Below, one piece after another: positions 18,090 to 47,074 of a stretch of DNA of 64,000 nucleotides. The translations under genes and the position numbers were made by a program. The notes beneath the pieces were generated by a model. The model saw only the letters and a program-made list of their open reading frames with translations, was not told the origin of the DNA and did no database searches. Source of the DNA: an uncultured Eubacteriales bacterium (GTDB lineage: Bacteria > Bacillota > Clostridia > Christensenellales > Aristaeellaceae). The stretch lies in contig CADAQF010000011.1 in NCBI GenBank assembly GCA_902790015.1, forward strand, positions 1-64,000, in the 5' to 3' direction. Numbering within the stretch: the stretch's first letter is position 1; each line of letters opens with the position of its first letter.

Positions 18090-20282
18090 TCAGTCCTCCG
18101 ACGACAGGCGCTGGCGTTCCACCAGGGCGGCGAAAAGGCCGTCTTTGGCGATCAGTTCCTCATACGTGCCGTCCTCGGCGATCTTTCCGCCGTCGATGAC
18201 CAGGATGCGGTCGCAGTGGCGGATGGTGGACAGGCGGTGGGCGATGACGATGCGGGTGCACTTCATCTGGTCCAGGGCTTCGGACACGCGCCGCTGGGTG
18301 ATGTTGTCCAGAGCGGAGGTGGCCTCGTCGAAGATGAGGATCCTGGGCTTGGGGGCAATCGCGCGGGCGATCATCAGGCGCTGGCGCTGGCCGCCCGAAA
18401 TGGTGCCGCCGCCGTCCTGCAAAACGGTGTTCATGCCCATGGGCATATCCCGTATGTCGTCGGCGATGCCGGCGATCTCCGCGGCGTCCCACGCTTCCTT
18501 CAGGGTGAGGGTCGGGGCGGATATCACGATATTGTCGAATATGCTGCCGGAAAAAAGCCTTCCGTCCTGCATCACGGTGCCTATCTGCCGGCGGACGGAG
18601 CGGACGTCCAGCTGATTGAGGTCCTTGCGGTCATAGTAGATGGCGCCGCGGGAGGGCTTTTCAAACCCCAGCAGCAGCCGCACCAGGGTGGATTTGCCGC
18701 AGCCGCTCTTGCCCACGATGGCCACGTACTGCCGGGCCGGGATGGTCAGGCTGAAGTCCTCAAAGAGGGGCTTGCTGTCCGGGTCGTAGCCGAAGGTGAC
18801 ATGGGAAAGCTCCACGCTGCCCGAAAGGCGGGCCAGGGTCTCGCTTGCGCCCGTGGTCTCGGGGCTGGCGGAAAGAAGGGGCTGTATAAGCCCAAGGACG
18901 GGCTTGATGGAGGCGGCGGAAAGGGCCACCGCGGCCAGAGAGGAAAACGCGGAGGATATATAGGCGTACGCCGCGTTGAAGGCGTAATAGTCCGCCACGC
19001 TGACCTGGCTTCTGACGGCCACGAAATACATGACGCCCGTGCCGATCATGGAAATGGCGGTGGTGAAAACGGAGGCCAGGCGGATGACGGCGGGGGGGCT
19101 GAAGGTCAGCTGGGCGGACTGCACAAAGACCTGGCTCCACTTGTAAAACGCGCGGTTTTCCGCCCCGCTCAGGCGGATCTTCTGTATGCCGTTGATCAGG
19201 GAATAGACCAGGCCTCTTTCCTTGGCGGTGTACACCATCTTTTCCTTGTCGATGCGCATCTGCACCAGGGCGGACACGAGGCTCACGGCAAGCGTCAGCA
19301 GCGTGACGATCAGGCTGGGCCCCACGAGGCTTGGGGCGAAGGAGAATATCTGCCCCAGGTAAACCAGGGAAAACACGCCGGTGACGGCGGTGGAGAAAAG
19401 GGAATCCACGATCGTCGTGCACAGGGAATCCATGTAGCTTAAATACTGGTTGAGCTCGCCGGCGGAATAGTCCTTGAAAAAGCCGGCGGGCAGGGACAGG
19501 ATGCGCATCATGGTGGCCGCGCTCACGTTCACGCTGAGCTTATAGCGGATGCGGTAAAGCAGCGTGGAGCGGATGACGGATAAAAGCAGCGTCCCGACGG
19601 TTGCAAAAAACAGGAACGACATGACCGCCGCCAGCAGCCGCATGCTGCCGGAGGAAACCACCGTGCCCATCAGCAGCTGGTTAAGCTTGGGGATAAGCAT
19701 CCCCACCAGCGTGATGGCCAGGGCGGACAGGCCGAAGCTGACCAGGTCCCGCGTGGTCAGGCAGCTGGTCATATAGCGCAGAAGGTCCTTGAGCGTAAGC
19801 TCCCGCATCGGCAGGGGGCGGTAAAAGCACAGGGCCTCCCGGCTGATGTTTTTTTCCTCCCCGGCGGTCACGCGCACGCGCTTTCCGGTTTCCGGGTCCA
19901 TGTATTCATACCCGCCCATAGCGGAGGGCAGCATGGAGACGACCGTGCCCTCATCCCTGAGGGAGGTGATCATGGGGCCCATCGCGTCTGAGTGCCAGCC
20001 CTTGGTGAGGATGACCTCCCGGTAATGTACGCCGGTGGAAGAAAGCAGGAAATCCAGCCGGTCGCGCAGGCCCTTGATATTGGCCGGCACCTCCCGCTCT
20101 TTGATGCCCAGGTGCTTGAGCAGCCCCGACACCGCGTCGCTCACGTCGGTCCGGTCGTTCAGGCTGCTGCGCGTCTTGCGCCCGGTGACGGAACGGGCGA
20201 TGTTTTCGAAGGAATCGCTGAGCAGTTCCCTTTCGTGTTTTTTCCTGAATTCGATCTGATCGTCAAACCAACCCACAGCCAT
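18090..20282 (-). CDS. NHLP-family peptide export ABC transporter, permease/ATPase subunit
   Basis: A 730-residue half-transporter of the type that accompanies NHLP (NHLM) bacteriocin systems. A non-catalytic N-terminal region of about 160 residues, with no peptidase motif, is followed by a six-helix permease and an ATPase with Walker A GKSGCGKST, signature ISGGQRQRL and Walker B ILIFDEATSALD. It starts 8 bp after the peptidase-bearing partner, so the two are probably made together as a heterodimer that exports leader peptides. No precursor gene or modification enzyme lies beside it. Confidence 0.88.
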   Translation of the reverse strand: MAVGWFDDQIEFRKKHERELLSDSFENIARSVTGRKTRSSLNDRTDVSDAVSGLLKHLGIKEREVPANIKGLRDRLDFLLSSTGVHYREVILTKGWHSDAMGPMITSLRDEGTVVSMLPSAMGGYEYMDPETGKRVRVTAGEEKNISREALCFYRPLPMRELTLKDLLRYMTSCLTTRDLVSFGLSALAITLVGMLIPKLNQLLMGTVVSSGSMRLLAAVMSFLFFATVGTLLLSVIRSTLLYRIRYKLSVNVSAATMMRILSLPAGFFKDYSAGELNQYLSYMDSLCTTIVDSLFSTAVTGVFSLVYLGQIFSFAPSLVGPSLIVTLLTLAVSLVSALVQMRIDKEKMVYTAKERGLVYSLINGIQKIRLSGAENRAFYKWSQVFVQSAQLTFSPPAVIRLASVFTTAISMIGTGVMYFVAVRSQVSVADYYAFNAAYAYISSAFSSLAAVALSAASIKPVLGLIQPLLSASPETTGASETLARLSGSVELSHVTFGYDPDSKPLFEDFSLTIPARQYVAIVGKSGCGKSTLVRLLLGFEKPSRGAIYYDRKDLNQLDVRSVRRQIGTVMQDGRLFSGSIFDNIVISAPTLTLKEAWDAAEIAGIADDIRDMPMGMNTVLQDGGGTISGGQRQRLMIARAIAPKPRILIFDEATSALDNITQRRVSEALDQMKCTRIVIAHRLSTIRHCDRILVIDGGKIAEDGTYEELIAKDGLFAALVERQRLSSED

Positions 20283-20290
20283 TCACCTCC

Positions 20291-22468
20291 TTATTCGCTT
20301 CTCACCAGGTCAGCGTACATGCCGCCCCGGGCGAAAAGCTCGTCATGGGTGCCGCGCTCCACGATGTGTCCCTTGTCCAGGACGATGATCTCGTCGCAGT
20401 CCCTGATGGTGGACAGCCGGTGGGCGATGATGATGCAGGTGATGCCGCGGTCGTTGATGGACTGGATGACATCATGCTCGGTGCGGGCGTCCAGGGCGGA
20501 GGTGGCCTCGTCCATGATGCAGATGGTGGGATCCTGGGAAAGCGCCCTGGCGATCTCCAGCCTCTGGCGCTGGCCGCCGGAAAGATCCCGCCCGCCGTCC
20601 AGCAGCCGGTGGGAGAAGCCGCCGTCCCTGGTCATGATGTCGTCGTAAATGCCGGCGTCCTTGGCGGCCAGGATGGCCTCGAAGTCCTCAATGGAATCGT
20701 CCCACATCTTGATGTTCTGGGAAACGGTATCCTCAAACAGGGTGATGTCCTGGTCGATGACGCTGACGGAGCCGGTGAAGACGTTGCGGTCGATCTCCTC
20801 CAGCGGCACGCCGTCAAAGGTGACGGAGCCGCTCCAGGGACGGTACAGGCCCGAAATGAGCTTGGCCAGGGTGGACTTTCCGCACCCGGTGCGCCCCACG
20901 AAGGCGATCTTCTGCCCGGGCTTCACGGTCATGGAAAAATCGGTGATCAGGGGCTTTCCCAGGCGGGAATAGCCGAAGGTGATATCCTTGAGCTCGATGG
21001 CGCCGGAGAGCTTCTGGTAGGTATCCTTCTTTTCCCTGGGGTCAAAGGACGGGTCCTCCCGGTAGCTCATCACGTCGTCCACGCGCTCCATCTGGGTGGT
21101 CATTTCCTGCAGGGACTGGCCCGCAGCGATCAGCGAGGATGCGGGGGACATAAAGGACGACAGGAAGCTCTGGAAGGCCATGACCATGCCGGGGGTGAAA
21201 TGCCCCTGGATGACCAGCATCACGCCGATGCCCAGCACAGCCAGGTTGGCGACGGCCGTGATGGCGCTGGGCAGCGTGCCCAGGAAGAGGTTTAGCCGGG
21301 TGTAGGACACAGACTGGGTGTTCACGCTGGCCTGATAGCCCGCCCAGCGGCTGAAGAAGCCGTTTTCAGCCCCGCTGGACTTGATGGTCTCTATCATGCT
21401 GATGCCCGACATCGTGGCGGAGGAAAGCTTGGCGGCGTCGCGCTGCTGCACGCGGGTGATGTTGACGCGTTTGGCGGTGATGAGGGAGGATACCGCCAGG
21501 TTAAGCGCGATGGCACCGACCCCGATCAGCGAAAGCAGGGGGCTGTAGCGGATCATGACCACCAGGTAAAACACCATCATCAGCGCCTGCAGGGCCAGGG
21601 GCGCGAAGGTCTTGACCAGGGCGGAGGCGATGGACGCGTTGGTGGCCTGCCGGTCGGCGATATCGGCGGAGAGGCGCTGCTGAAAAAACTGCATCGGGAG
21701 CCTCAGCACCTTCCACAGGTAGGAGGCGCTGCCGTAGGAGGTCATTTTTCCCTGTATGCGCAGCGAATACACCGCCGATATCCAGCTGACCGTCACACTG
21801 ATCAGGATGAGCAGGCCGAACAAAAGCATGAACGGCGTCAGCCATTCCGGGTTTTCCCGGGTCAGCAGCCGGTCCAGGAAGGTGCGGGAGAAGGCGGGGG
21901 AGATGATGCCCAGCAGGGAAGAGATGGTGGTGGTGAGCACTACGAACGCTACCGCGGCGCCGGAGCCCTTCAGTCTTTCCCGGGCGTAGGACCATACGGA
22001 CTTGGGCTTGCCGGAGGGCACGAAGCCATCAGCCGGCGAGAAGGTGAGGCAGACGCCGGTGAACTCCCGGTCAAACTCTTCCCAGTCCACGGTCACGCGG
22101 CCGCGGGCGGGGTCGTTCAAAACGGCCTGTTTGCCCTTAAAGCCGCACAGCACCACGAAGTGGTTGAAGCCCCAGTGGATGATGCAGGGAAACGGGCCCT
22201 CGTTCAGCAGATCCTCCGGCTCCAGCCGCCAGGCGCTGGCCTCCATGCCGTAGCTGCGGGCGGCCAGCAGGATGTTCTTGGCGCTGGCGCCGTCCATGGA
22301 AACGCCGCAGTCCACCCGGGCCTGCTCCAGGGGGATCCACTTGCGGTAATAATGCATGATCATGGTCAGCGACGCCGCGCCGCATTCCAGCGCCTCCATC
22401 TGCATGACCACCGGGACCCTGACCACCCCTTTTTCAATCGGGGCGGGAACTTTTTTCCTGTTGAACAC
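20291..22468 (-). CDS. NHLP-family peptidase/permease/ATPase (C39 peptidase ABC exporter)
   Basis: A 725-residue exporter that cleaves double-glycine leaders while exporting the peptide. The N-terminal C39 peptidase has Cys29 (MEALECGAASLTM), His103 (HWGFNHFVVL) and Asp119 (LNDPARG). A six-helix permease and an ATPase follow (GRTGCGKST, LSGGQRQRL, ICIMDEATSALD). It is the middle gene of the cassette, 12 bp after the short membrane-fusion protein and 8 bp before the second ABC gene. All catalytic residues appear intact, so it should be active. Its only visible candidate substrates in the window are the GG-leader peptides at 46.2-46.9 kb. Confidence 0.93.
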   Translation of the reverse strand: MFNRKKVPAPIEKGVVRVPVVMQMEALECGAASLTMIMHYYRKWIPLEQARVDCGVSMDGASAKNILLAARSYGMEASAWRLEPEDLLNEGPFPCIIHWGFNHFVVLCGFKGKQAVLNDPARGRVTVDWEEFDREFTGVCLTFSPADGFVPSGKPKSVWSYARERLKGSGAAVAFVVLTTTISSLLGIISPAFSRTFLDRLLTRENPEWLTPFMLLFGLLILISVTVSWISAVYSLRIQGKMTSYGSASYLWKVLRLPMQFFQQRLSADIADRQATNASIASALVKTFAPLALQALMMVFYLVVMIRYSPLLSLIGVGAIALNLAVSSLITAKRVNITRVQQRDAAKLSSATMSGISMIETIKSSGAENGFFSRWAGYQASVNTQSVSYTRLNLFLGTLPSAITAVANLAVLGIGVMLVIQGHFTPGMVMAFQSFLSSFMSPASSLIAAGQSLQEMTTQMERVDDVMSYREDPSFDPREKKDTYQKLSGAIELKDITFGYSRLGKPLITDFSMTVKPGQKIAFVGRTGCGKSTLAKLISGLYRPWSGSVTFDGVPLEEIDRNVFTGSVSVIDQDITLFEDTVSQNIKMWDDSIEDFEAILAAKDAGIYDDIMTRDGGFSHRLLDGGRDLSGGQRQRLEIARALSQDPTICIMDEATSALDARTEHDVIQSINDRGITCIIIAHRLSTIRDCDEIIVLDKGHIVERGTHDELFARGGMYADLVRSE

Positions 22469-22480
22469 GCTTTTTCCCCC

Positions 22481-22969
22481 TTACCTGAACAGCAGGGAAA
22501 TGGGAGCCAGGTCCTCCGTCACGACCTCGCCGGTATAAAACCCTTCGGGCAGGTCGGTCAGCACGGGCACCTCTATGACCAGGTCACCCACCCTGAGCGG
22601 CCCCGCCAGCAAAAGCCCCGGCGCGGTTTTCGCGGTGATCAGGGAGGTCTCGGGCGCGCTGTCGGTCAGCAGCGGGTAATCCTTGCCCTTCACACTGACG
22701 ACGCCGCTGGCCAGCACTTTTTCGGCGGCAGCGTAGGGTACGTAGCACACGCTTTTTTCTCCGGTGATGCCGACGGCGAATTCGCCCGTGGTGCGGATAT
22801 GGCCGAAAATGCCCCACAGGATCCCCCCTATGAGCAGGGCGATCACCGCTGCCATCACCAGCCACACCCCGGGGGAGGTGACGCGCAGGTAATCGTTCAG
22901 GGCCTCCGGGGATTCCACTGCCTCCAGGCTTTTTTCACGGAATAATCTGACCTTGGGCTGCTCCGACAT
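22481..22969 (-). CDS. Very short NHLP/HlyD-type secretion accessory protein
   Basis: A 162-residue protein with an N-terminal cytoplasmic segment, one transmembrane helix (about 33-55) and a short beta-rich extracytoplasmic part with two half-lipoyl-like strands (TGEFAVGITG..., LAGPLRVGDLVIEVPV). Position and N-terminus (VRLFREKSLEAVESPEALNDYLRVTSPGVW) match NHLM-system HlyD proteins, which are normally about 400 residues with a long coiled coil. Here the coiled-coil hairpin is missing. It is the first gene of the cassette behind a strong promoter. The frame is clean, so this looks like a real short form, as might suit a single-membrane cell. Confidence 0.8.
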   Translation of the reverse strand: MSEQPKVRLFREKSLEAVESPEALNDYLRVTSPGVWLVMAAVIALLIGGILWGIFGHIRTTGEFAVGITGEKSVCYVPYAAAEKVLASGVVSVKGKDYPLLTDSAPETSLITAKTAPGLLLAGPLRVGDLVIEVPVLTDLPEGFYTGEVVTEDLAPISLLFR

Positions 22970-23003
22970 GTTGGGCGCCCCCTTCCTTTTTTTACGTCAT
23001 TTC

Positions 23004-23032
23004 ATTATAACAGGGGAAAGGGGAGAATGCAA
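23004..23032 (-). promoter_or_regulatory. Promoter of the NHLP export operon
   Basis: Minus-strand TTGCAT (23032-23027) and TATAAT (23009-23004) are separated by 17 bp. This lies 35-63 bp before the first cassette gene, with GGAAGGGGG as ribosome binding site. Confidence 0.82.
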
Positions 23033-23042
23033 GGAATAACGA

Positions 23043-23465
23043 TGGGCTCACGCAGAATGCGTGAGCAACTGGGAAGGGGACTTCCAGCCAGGGCGTGCCG
23101 GCCAGTTCGTCGGTGAAAAAGGGCCACAGGCCTGTTCTCCGAGACGTGCCTCACCCCAAAAGGCTTCCCCTTGGAGGGGAAGCTGTCAGGCGCGGAAAAT
23201 GCCTGAAATTATAATACGTTTGCTTCGCGCCTGACTGATGAGGTGGTCTCCGTTCCCATAGCACTTTTATGCCTAGATGTTTTTCGGGTGCTTACCCAAG
23301 TAACCCAGGGCCTGCCGGCCCGTTCGGCGCTGAAAAAGGTCCACCGGACCTTTTTCCGGGCGCGCCTCACCCCAGTGCCTGCCGGCCCGTTCGGTACTGA
23401 AAATGATCCACCGGATCATTTTCCGGGCGTACCTCACCCACCGGACCGATTTCCGGGCCCTCCTC
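23043..23465. repeat. Modular palindromic intergenic repeat, copy 3 (tandem hairpin units)
   Basis: Fills most of the 596-bp gap between the divergent exporter and topB promoters. It opens with the GCTCACGCA/TGCGTGAGC module shared with 6893-6944. At least two tandem 67-bp units follow (GCCGGCCCGTTCGG...CTCACC), each with an A-tract hairpin: 23333-23355 and 23400-23422. A decayed unit lies at about 23115-23136 and a half unit ends at 23465. Short open frames here are not supported as genes. Confidence 0.72.
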
Positions 23466-23472
23466 ACCCTGT

Positions 23473-45918: not shown

Positions 45919-46234
45919 CCATGAACGTCCTTTTTCATTGGGCCGGGGACAGGGAAAAGCGCGTATCAGCAGGCGGGCAGAAGGACAATTAATCCGACAC
46001 GGCGGGGTCAATCCTTAAGGTCCATGAGGAAGGCGCGGAAGAGATGATTGTCCGCAGCATCATCATTTGGGGGATGAAGCTCATTGTCAGGCTGCCGTCT
46101 CACGATGAATTTAATCTGCTGCGGAAAGCAAGGCGCCGCTGCCATTAACGGCCTTTCATGCGTATCAAGAACTGTCGGGCAGCGTGAAGCCGCCCGGCAG
46201 ATTCCCAGAATATGAAAAACAAAGGAGAAAAACC
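45919..46234. other. Intergenic region ahead of the peptide genes
   Basis: This 316-bp stretch separates the 5'-nucleotidase promoter from the first GG-leader peptide gene. I see no convincing gene; an 85-codon minus-strand frame has no ribosome binding site or recognisable product. It must hold the promoter for the peptide genes, but no hexamer pair with good spacing stands out. The AAAGGAG site lies at 46221-46227. Confidence 0.4.
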
Positions 46235-46441
46235 ATGCAGAACGATAAAATGTCCGAGCTGTCAAACGAAGATATCATCAAAGCCGACGGCGGTACGCTG
46301 AACGCCATGGAAGAGCGTTCAATGGATCTTATGATAAAACTGTTCAAAAAGCAGGGAAGAAAGATGGAAGAGATTTATCAGATCAGTGGCCTGCCTGACG
46401 AGCAAAGAGAGTATATCCGCCAGAATTGGTACAAGAACTGA
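46235..46441 (+). CDS. Double-glycine leader peptide 1 (bacteriocin-like precursor)
   Basis: A 68-residue peptide. The first 20 residues fit a C39-type leader: SELSNEDIIKADGG, with Glu8-Leu9 and hydrophobic residues at the usual spacing before Gly19-Gly20. The rest (21-68) is a charged, helical segment (MDLMIKLFKKQGRKMEEIYQ, ending REYIRQNWYKN) and lacks the Cys/Ser/Thr richness of modified peptides. It could be an unmodified secreted peptide or signal. AAAGGAG lies 7 nt before the start. A terminator follows. The nearest exporter with a C39 peptidase is at 20291-22468. No immunity gene is apparent. Confidence 0.7.
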   Translation: MQNDKMSELSNEDIIKADGGTLNAMEERSMDLMIKLFKKQGRKMEEIYQISGLPDEQREYIRQNWYKN

Positions 46442-46455
46442 ACCTTCCTTTCGGG

Positions 46456-46496
46456 GCCGCTGCATAAAGCGAGAAAAGCTGCAGCGGCTCCTTTTT
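46456..46496 (+). terminator. Terminator after peptide gene 1
   Basis: A 9-bp perfect stem (46456-46464 with 46480-46488) followed by TCCTTTTTC. The remaining gap to 46742 shows only AT-rich sequence near the next start and no other gene. Confidence 0.85.
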
Positions 46497-46742
46497 CGCT
46501 TCATCGGGTGGATGTTCAGCCAGGGGCGTTCGGGGGATCACGGCATTCGCATTCACTTGCCGATCGCGGCCTCCCGTGCATGGGGGACGTTACCGGAATC
46601 TGATAATCCAGTTTTTTTCATTACCTCCTGCCATACCCCTCCTGTCCGCTGTATCAACAGGTGCAAGGGGCAATAAAGCTCCTGCAGAAAACAAAGATAA
46701 TCAAAGAGAATCGATAAAAGAAAAAAACAGGATGAAAATAAA

Positions 46743-46916
46743 ATGAAGACTATCGTGAATGAACTGAATCTGAAGGACCTGGAAAAAGCAAACGGAGGCG
46801 TCGACATCATCCCCGTTGAACCCATTTGCCCCTTCGTGTCCGTCCCCGTTCCCTTCCCCTTCCCCAAGCCCGAACCCACGAAGCCCATCATCTTTGACCC
46901 GCAGAATCAGATGTAA
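46743..46916 (+). CDS. Double-glycine leader peptide 2 with proline-rich tail
   Basis: A 57-residue peptide. The leader MKTIVNELNLKDLEKANGG is a textbook C39 leader: Glu7-Leu8, Leu10, Leu13 and Gly18-Gly19. The predicted mature part (20-57) has 38 residues, 11 of them proline. It includes an alternating X-Pro run at 34-45 (VPVPFPFPKPEP), one Cys (29), and no Ser/Thr cluster. The AGGAT site lies 10 nt before the ATG. It is followed by two strong hairpins, so it is a stand-alone transcript end. The tail resembles proline-rich antimicrobial or extended surface peptides more than known lantibiotics. The function is not known. Confidence 0.78.
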   Translation: MKTIVNELNLKDLEKANGGVDIIPVEPICPFVSVPVPFPFPKPEPTKPIIFDPQNQM

Positions 46917-46985: not shown

Positions 46986-47074
46986 CCGTTTCCTTAAGGG
47001 CCGCAAGGCCCGCGGAAACGGAAGAAGGGGAGGTCCCGGACGAATACGTCCCGGAGGCCTCCCCTCCTTTTTTT
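46986..47074 (+). terminator. Tandem hairpins after peptide gene 2
   Basis: First hairpin: CCGTTTCC/GGAAACGG (46986-47021) with an inner GGGCC/GGCCC stem. Second: GGGGAGG/CCTCCCC (47027-47064) with an inner GGACG/CGTCC stem, followed by a run of seven T. The second is a strong terminator. Confidence 0.88.

What the first reader, a model, noticed from the sequence alone, without database searches (positions are those of the whole stretch)
46235..46916. Two double-glycine-leader peptides, one with a proline-rich mature part
Both small genes have C39-type leaders ending in GG with the expected E-L and hydrophobic spacing. The second gives a predicted 38-residue product with 11 prolines, an alternating X-Pro run and one cysteine. 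This does not resemble lantibiotics, Nif11 or NHLP precursors and may be an undescribed secreted peptide class.
Basis: partly seen in the sequence, partly recalled or inferred. Interest (0 to 1): 0.85.

Follow-up and report, generated by a model that had tools for sequence, protein, structure and literature searches.

The report
Exported small proteins sharing one promoter
Two small genes encode proteins carrying the tag read by one class of peptide exporters; they belong to a scattered set of such genes that share one promoter-like DNA signal, apparently read by a sigma factor encoded beside such an exporter, which suggests these gut bacteria switch on a varied batch of exported small proteins together.

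Summary
P1 (46235-46441, 68 aa) and P2 (46743-46916, 57 aa; 38-aa core with 11 Pro and 1 Cys) have leaders in the exact peptidase-C39 register. A C39/PCAT exporter of the NHLM type lies in the same window (18090-22969, minus strand); a second lies on another contig. The interpretation needs changing. P2 has no homologue in the relatives searched, so no "proline-rich class" is shown. P1 is a conserved family (helical core, purifying selection, several genera). What unites them is upstream: CTGCCA-N15/16-CGTATCA, a bipartite ECF-sigma-like promoter, before P1, P2 and many other small genes. In four genomes 21 of 54 strict sites precede a GG-leader ORF (controls 3 and 0); cores include LysM and SH3. 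The motif is enriched in genomes that carry a ~62-aa protein paired with an ECF sigma, and it precedes that pair in relatives (autoregulation); in near relatives the pair often sits beside the exporter. The ~62-aa protein matches no Pfam or NCBIfam family and carries the C39 recognition motif, with Ala-Ala for Gly-Gly in 56 of 57 aligned members. A FlgM-like export-coupled switch is possible but untested. Best reading: P1 and P2 belong to an ECF-sigma/PCAT small-protein export regulon.

The parts
46139..46167 (+). promoter-like motif of P1: CTGCCA-N16-CGTATCA (-35/-10 of ECF type)
   Evidence: two hits in the window, 0 of 100 shuffles reach two; same motif upstream of many GG-leader genes
46172..46200 (+). 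hairpin at predicted 5' end of P1 mRNA
   Evidence: -21.2 kcal/mol, z -4.65
46235..46441 (+). P1, GG-leader small protein, 68 aa (leader 46235-46294, core 46295-46438)
   Evidence: AF2 core of three helices, block means 85-92
46453..46497 (+). intrinsic terminator of P1
   Evidence: z -3.3
46628..46656 (+). promoter-like motif of P2: CTGCCA-N16-TGTATCA
46662..46686 (+). hairpin at predicted 5' end of P2 mRNA
   Evidence: -12.6 kcal/mol, z -3.54
46743..46916 (+). P2, GG-leader peptide, 57 aa (leader 46743-46799, proline-rich core 46800-46913)
   Evidence: no homologue
47026..47074 (+). intrinsic terminator of P2
   Evidence: z -3.1
20291..22468 (-). PCAT ABC1 with N-terminal peptidase C39 (candidate exporter of P1/P2)
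   Evidence: TIGR03796 902.7 bits over cut-off 853.3; PF03412 113.8 bits; PCAT1 and 6mpz relatives
18090..20282 (-). PCAT ABC2, partner transporter without a peptidase C39 hit
   Evidence: TIGR03797 701.2 bits, just under cut-off 709.4; no PF03412
22481..22969 (-). short HlyD-like accessory protein, 162 aa
   Evidence: TIGR03794 N-terminal match, E 3.8e-9, below cut-off

Best explanation
P1 and P2 are precursors of small secreted proteins. A peptidase-C39 exporter of the NHLM/PCAT type (one copy in this window, one on contig C15) removes the leader after Gly-Gly and secretes the core; no modifying enzyme was recognised beside them, so the products are probably unmodified. Each gene is transcribed alone from an ECF-sigma-type promoter (CTGCCA-N15/16-CGTATCA) into a short mRNA that starts with a hairpin and ends at a terminator. 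The sigma is most likely the ECF factor encoded with the C15 exporter; with it the cell switches on a dispersed regulon of GG-leader proteins (LysM, SH3, P1, P2 and others) plus several proteins with Sec-type signals. Shown by sequence: leaders, exporters, shared motif and its enrichment, motif at the sigma's own promoter in relatives. Inferred: cleavage and export, sigma-promoter pairing, products acting at or outside the cell surface.
For: Leader register. Exporters. Leader pattern 25 sites in the genus, reversed control 0. Motif: 65 distinct strict sites, spacer 15 or 16 in 63 of 65, with positions that were not in the pattern also conserved (A 62/65, then T 54/65 and G 60/65 at the expected start of transcription), and the first 42 nt fold better than shuffles (mean z -1.6 against +0.2 for the next 42 nt). 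21 of 54 strict sites in four genomes precede a GG-leader ORF, controls 3 and 0. Genomes with the small protein that pairs with the sigma have mean 6.2 motif hits, those without 0.6, p 5e-7; within the genus G003, G005 and G006 lack this protein and NHLM ABC1 over cut-off and have few motif hits. The motif lies directly upstream of the small-protein/ECF-sigma pair in G001, G002, G007 and G032, and in further loci of the wider scan. P1 orthologues carry the GG leader and a motif-like site.
Against: No transcription, binding or secretion data. 33 of 54 strict sites had no GG-leader ORF by the test used; some of these precede proteins with Sec-like signals, zinc-ribbon or small membrane proteins, the small regulator itself, or GG-like ORFs that the test missed, and some may be chance. 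The sigma of this genome (C15) has no clear motif upstream. G005 has one GG-leader gene with a perfect motif but no NHLM ABC1 or small protein found (88% complete). Which of two exporters serves P1/P2 is unknown. P2 has no orthologue, so its tail cannot be tested for constraint. Motif counts compare related genomes, so the p-value overstates independence.
Confidence: 0.72

Rival explanations
1. Ordinary class II bacteriocins or bacteriocin-like peptides: P1 and P2 kill competitors and are made from orphan genes; the shared motif is merely a common promoter.
For: GG leader plus C39 exporter is the classic bacteriocin route; another GG-leader gene of the same genome matches Bacteriocin_IIc (own contig C18, E 1.2e-7).
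Against: P1/P2 match no bacteriocin family; no immunity-type gene recognised beside them; P1 core is conserved between genera with purifying selection, unlike typical fast-changing bacteriocins; regulon neighbours include LysM and SH3 proteins.
Confidence: 0.25
2. P1/P2 are peptide signals (pheromones) of a quorum-type circuit.
For: GG-leader exporters also export signalling peptides (PMC6363468).
Against: No histidine kinase or receptor gene was recognised beside P1/P2 (by eye, not searched); P1 core is a 48-aa helical domain, large for a pheromone; P2 is not conserved.
Confidence: 0.08
3. Precursors of modified natural products (RiPPs) of the NHLP/Nif11 kind, with modification enzymes elsewhere in the genome.
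For: The exporter is the type associated with NHLP/Nif11 precursors, which may lie far from export genes (PMC2887384).
Against: Leaders are 19-20 aa, not the 70-83 aa average of those families, with no NHLP/Nif11 match; no modification enzyme recognised beside the genes; cores are poor in Cys/Ser/Thr.
Confidence: 0.07
4. The upstream element is a structured RNA (riboswitch-like) rather than a promoter.
For: A hairpin follows the boxes at many sites.
Against: Two fixed boxes at fixed spacing, hairpin sequence variable; no Rfam match near a gathering score; geometry is that of an ECF promoter.
Confidence: 0.08

Closest known systems
GG-leader substrates of AMS/PCAT transporters (class II bacteriocins, ComC-type peptides)
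   Same: leader register Leu(-12), acidic -8, hydrophobic -7, small -4, GG; C39 exporter in the genome
   Different: P1/P2 cores unlike any listed family; genes are dispersed and share an ECF-type promoter; sister products include LysM and SH3 domain proteins
NHLP/Nif11 (N11P) natural-product precursors and their TIGR03794/03796/03797 export system
   Same: same transporter families, over cut-off for ABC1
   Different: short leaders without NHLP or Nif11 domain; HlyD-like protein is short and below cut-off; no tailoring enzymes recognised beside the genes
ECF sigma factor regulons
   Same: bipartite promoter with a CGTAT -10, apparent autoregulation in relatives, small gene overlapping or abutting the sigma gene
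   Different: small partner is not a membrane anti-sigma but a short protein with a C39-leader-like motif; targets include exporter substrates
FlgM (exported anti-sigma of the flagellar system, from my own knowledge)
   Same: proposed logic: a small sigma partner that looks like a substrate of the exporter whose cargo genes the sigma controls
   Different: no sequence or fold relation shown; anti-sigma function and export are untested; Ala-Ala instead of Gly-Gly in nearly all members

Membership tests
GG-leader PCAT substrate | N-terminal leader with L-12, acidic -8, hydrophobic -7, GG at -2/-1 | tested here: met
   against the consensus in PMC6363468
GG-leader PCAT substrate | C39 exporter encoded in the genome | tested here: met
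   two loci
GG-leader PCAT substrate | leader is cleaved and core secreted | not testable with these tools
   needs biochemistry or mass spectrometry
NHLP or Nif11 precursor | long NHase-like or Nif11 leader domain | tested here: not met
   no match; leaders 19-20 aa
Class II bacteriocin | match to a bacteriocin family | tested here: not met
   for P1 and P2; another gene of the genome does match
Class II bacteriocin | adjacent immunity gene | tested here: inconclusive
   ORF list and hand-read neighbours only: none recognised; small immunity proteins are easily missed
Lanthipeptide or other RiPP | modification enzyme near the precursor | tested here: inconclusive
   none recognised among the neighbouring ORFs by eye; neighbours were not scanned, nor was the rest of the genome
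NHLM-type exporter (window copy) | ABC1 over the curated cut-off of TIGR03796 | tested here: met
   902.7 against 853.3 bits
NHLM-type exporter (window copy) | ABC2 over the curated cut-off of TIGR03797 | tested here: not met
   701.2 against 709.4 bits (C15 copy 712.6, met)
NHLM-type exporter (window copy) | full-length HlyD fusion protein TIGR03794 | tested here: not met
   only positions 3-45 of 421 match
ECF sigma regulon | bipartite promoter at the sigma's own gene and its targets | tested here: met
   in relatives; not clear for the C15 sigma of this genome
ECF sigma regulon | sigma needed for transcription of the targets | not testable with these tools
   needs a deletion or in vitro transcription
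FlgM-like exported anti-sigma | small partner inhibits the sigma and is exported | not testable with these tools
   only leader register and gene order known
FlgM-like exported anti-sigma | cleavable double-glycine site in the small partner | tested here: not met
   Ala-Ala in 56 of 57 aligned members; a true GG is formed in three (L225, L242, L243)

The most novel reading that the evidence does not exclude
The ~62-aa protein encoded with the ECF sigma is an export-coupled regulator: its N-terminal half (invariant Phe and Gln) holds the sigma, its leader-like motif docks on the exporter's C39 domain, and the state of the exporter releases the sigma, so that GG-leader cargo (P1, P2, LysM and others) is made only when export capacity is free. 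This would be a type I/PCAT counterpart of the flagellar FlgM switch, present in diverse gut Clostridia and, judged by relatives of the small protein and sigma, in Treponema.
Probability: 0.25. Interest if true: 0.9.

Novelty: new variant of a known kind. Interest (0 to 1): 0.7.

Why it matters
C39/PCAT exporters are usually seen as dedicated to one bacteriocin, pheromone or natural product. Here one exporter type appears to serve a sigma-controlled set of small proteins of varied kinds, including LysM proteins that could bind the cell wall, in uncultured gut and rumen Clostridia. The motif gives a direct way to list the set in related genomes, and the leader-like sigma partner makes a concrete, testable proposal for how export capacity and cargo expression could be coupled.

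Tried and rejected
Proline-rich peptide family around P2: protein search in 150 relatives and an EPTKP[IV][IV] search in 150 genomes gave no GG-leader relative; the link to L122 is weak. A first pattern for GG leader plus P-x-P-x-P found five further hits, none of them a proline-rich peptide on reading. Riboswitch reading of the upstream element: no Rfam match of weight. Phage origin of P1: no relative in viral contigs. Fold comparison of P1 and of the small sigma partner: no meaningful match; the partner's model is of modest confidence (pTM 0.34). Papers: searches of the open-access library for GG leaders with ECF sigma, LysM or NHLM, and for FlgM-like systems, returned no title on such a system; hits were judged by title and abstract, and subscription journals are not held. 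The whole genome was not available as a file, so the regulon of this genome was read from stretches only.

Full report
Observation. Both leaders match the published C39 recognition consensus (PMC6363468). Neither matches a Pfam or NCBIfam family above cut-off. Each gene stands alone between its own promoter-like motif and a terminator. Neighbours, named from the ORF list by eye and not scanned against a library, look like glycosidase, CotH-like, 5'-nucleotidase and uroporphyrinogen decarboxylase genes.

Exporter. The genome has two C39 exporters of the NHLM type: one in the window (HlyD-like, ABC1, ABC2, 18090-22969 minus) and one on contig C15 (L004), where the order is ~62-aa protein, ECF sigma, DUF218 protein, HlyD-like, ABC1, ABC2. 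The curated cut-offs are met for ABC1 in both, for ABC2 only on C15, and for HlyD in neither. The closest solved relatives that include the C39 domain are PCAT1 (4ry2) and the protease domain 6mpz.

P1 family. Relatives occur in 11 of 300 genomes of the family, in five genera. Eight are full length and keep the GG leader. In seven of these eight a CTGCC[AG]...[C]GTAT site lies upstream, some with a changed base; in G004 the -10 box is kept and the -35 box has diverged. Core pN/pS is 0.18-0.48 in six pairwise comparisons. The predicted core is three helices with confidence block means of 85-92; no solved structure resembles it.

P2. No homologue was found. A sister species has a proline-rich GG-leader gene with the same motif upstream (L122), but the similarity of the cores is weak (1.5% of shuffles). 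P2's function cannot be told from sequence.

Regulon. The upstream regions of many GG-leader genes of the genus share CTGCCA-N15/16-CGTATCA. The pattern was then scanned in genomes and the downstream genes read. Sixty-five distinct strict sites show conserved positions that were not part of the pattern and a 5' hairpin tendency. With a fixed rule, 21 of 54 strict sites in G000, G001, G002 and G004 precede a GG-leader ORF, against 3 and 0 in two controls. Some of these 21 genes were among those from which the motif was noticed; others, such as L087, L089, L097, L098, L106, L108, L116, L118, L120, L122, L126, L132, L139 and L141, were found only through the motif. Pfam was run on ten GG-leader proteins (nine with the motif upstream, and own C18, where it was not seen): two are LysM, one SH3_3, and own C18 Bacteriocin_IIc. 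Several other cores read as LysM by eye, which is a lead and not a test. Not all targets have GG leaders: some have Sec-like signals, zinc-ribbon or membrane segments by eye.

Sigma. The ~62-aa protein was found in 61 loci of the GTDB genome set. In 52 of the 61, by my count of the printed list, a relative of the C15 ECF sigma is recognised in the same few kilobases, usually just downstream and in some just upstream. ABC1, ABC2 or GG-leader ORFs lie in the same stretch in many but by no means all of them; flanks of about 3 kb, contig ends and a BLAST comparison with only this genome's exporter limit that count, and short or low-identity ABC matches there may be unrelated transporters. In near relatives the motif lies directly before this pair, which is the main reason for assigning the motif to this sigma. 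Presence of the protein goes with motif enrichment over 60 genomes. Within the genus it also goes with NHLM ABC1 over cut-off; outside it the match is loose: G016, G022 and G098 have ABC1 over cut-off without the protein, and G011 has the protein without such an ABC1.

Leader-like partner. In 57 aligned members the C39 register is kept: Leu-12 in 56, acidic -8 in 54, Val/Ile/Leu -4 in 53, then Ala-Ala in 56 and Gly at +1 in 56. Three (L225, L242, L243) read AAGG, which puts a true GG at the cleavage site. The N-terminal half holds the invariant Phe and Gln. No Pfam, NCBIfam or PDB relative of weight was found. Its role as anti-sigma, co-activator or exported peptide is open; the FlgM comparison is a proposal.

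Taxonomy. The window's source is not named.

Verdict. They are not shown to be a new proline-rich class. They are two members of an apparent ECF-sigma-controlled export regulon, which is the more interesting finding.

Noticed in passing
L091 / G000:C18:38566-38603: A GG-leader ORF of the same genome matches Bacteriocin_IIc over the cut-off.
   Followed up: partly
L090 / G000:C36:15667: A second copy of the ~62-aa sigma partner, with the motif upstream but no sigma recognised in the stretch read, followed by a GG-leader LysM-like ORF.
   Followed up: partly
L119 and L126 (G002): Two motif-linked small ORFs with unlike middles share the C-terminal end GGATGGW; L126 has a GG leader and L119 a leader-like motif ending in AG.
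   Followed up: no
L048 (G075:C171): Tandem array of GG-leader ORFs with CxxC pairs that look like zinc ribbons.
   Followed up: no
L213, L224, L238 (Clostridia): GG-leader ORFs with CxxC pairs near the sigma partner and ABC transporters.
   Followed up: no
window 23000-23470: Intergenic repeats around the text GGCCCGTTCGG...GAAAA, with hairpin-like units.
   Followed up: no
window 22481-22969 and L004 6274-6936: HlyD-like proteins match only the first ~45 positions of TIGR03794: short accessory proteins.
   Followed up: no
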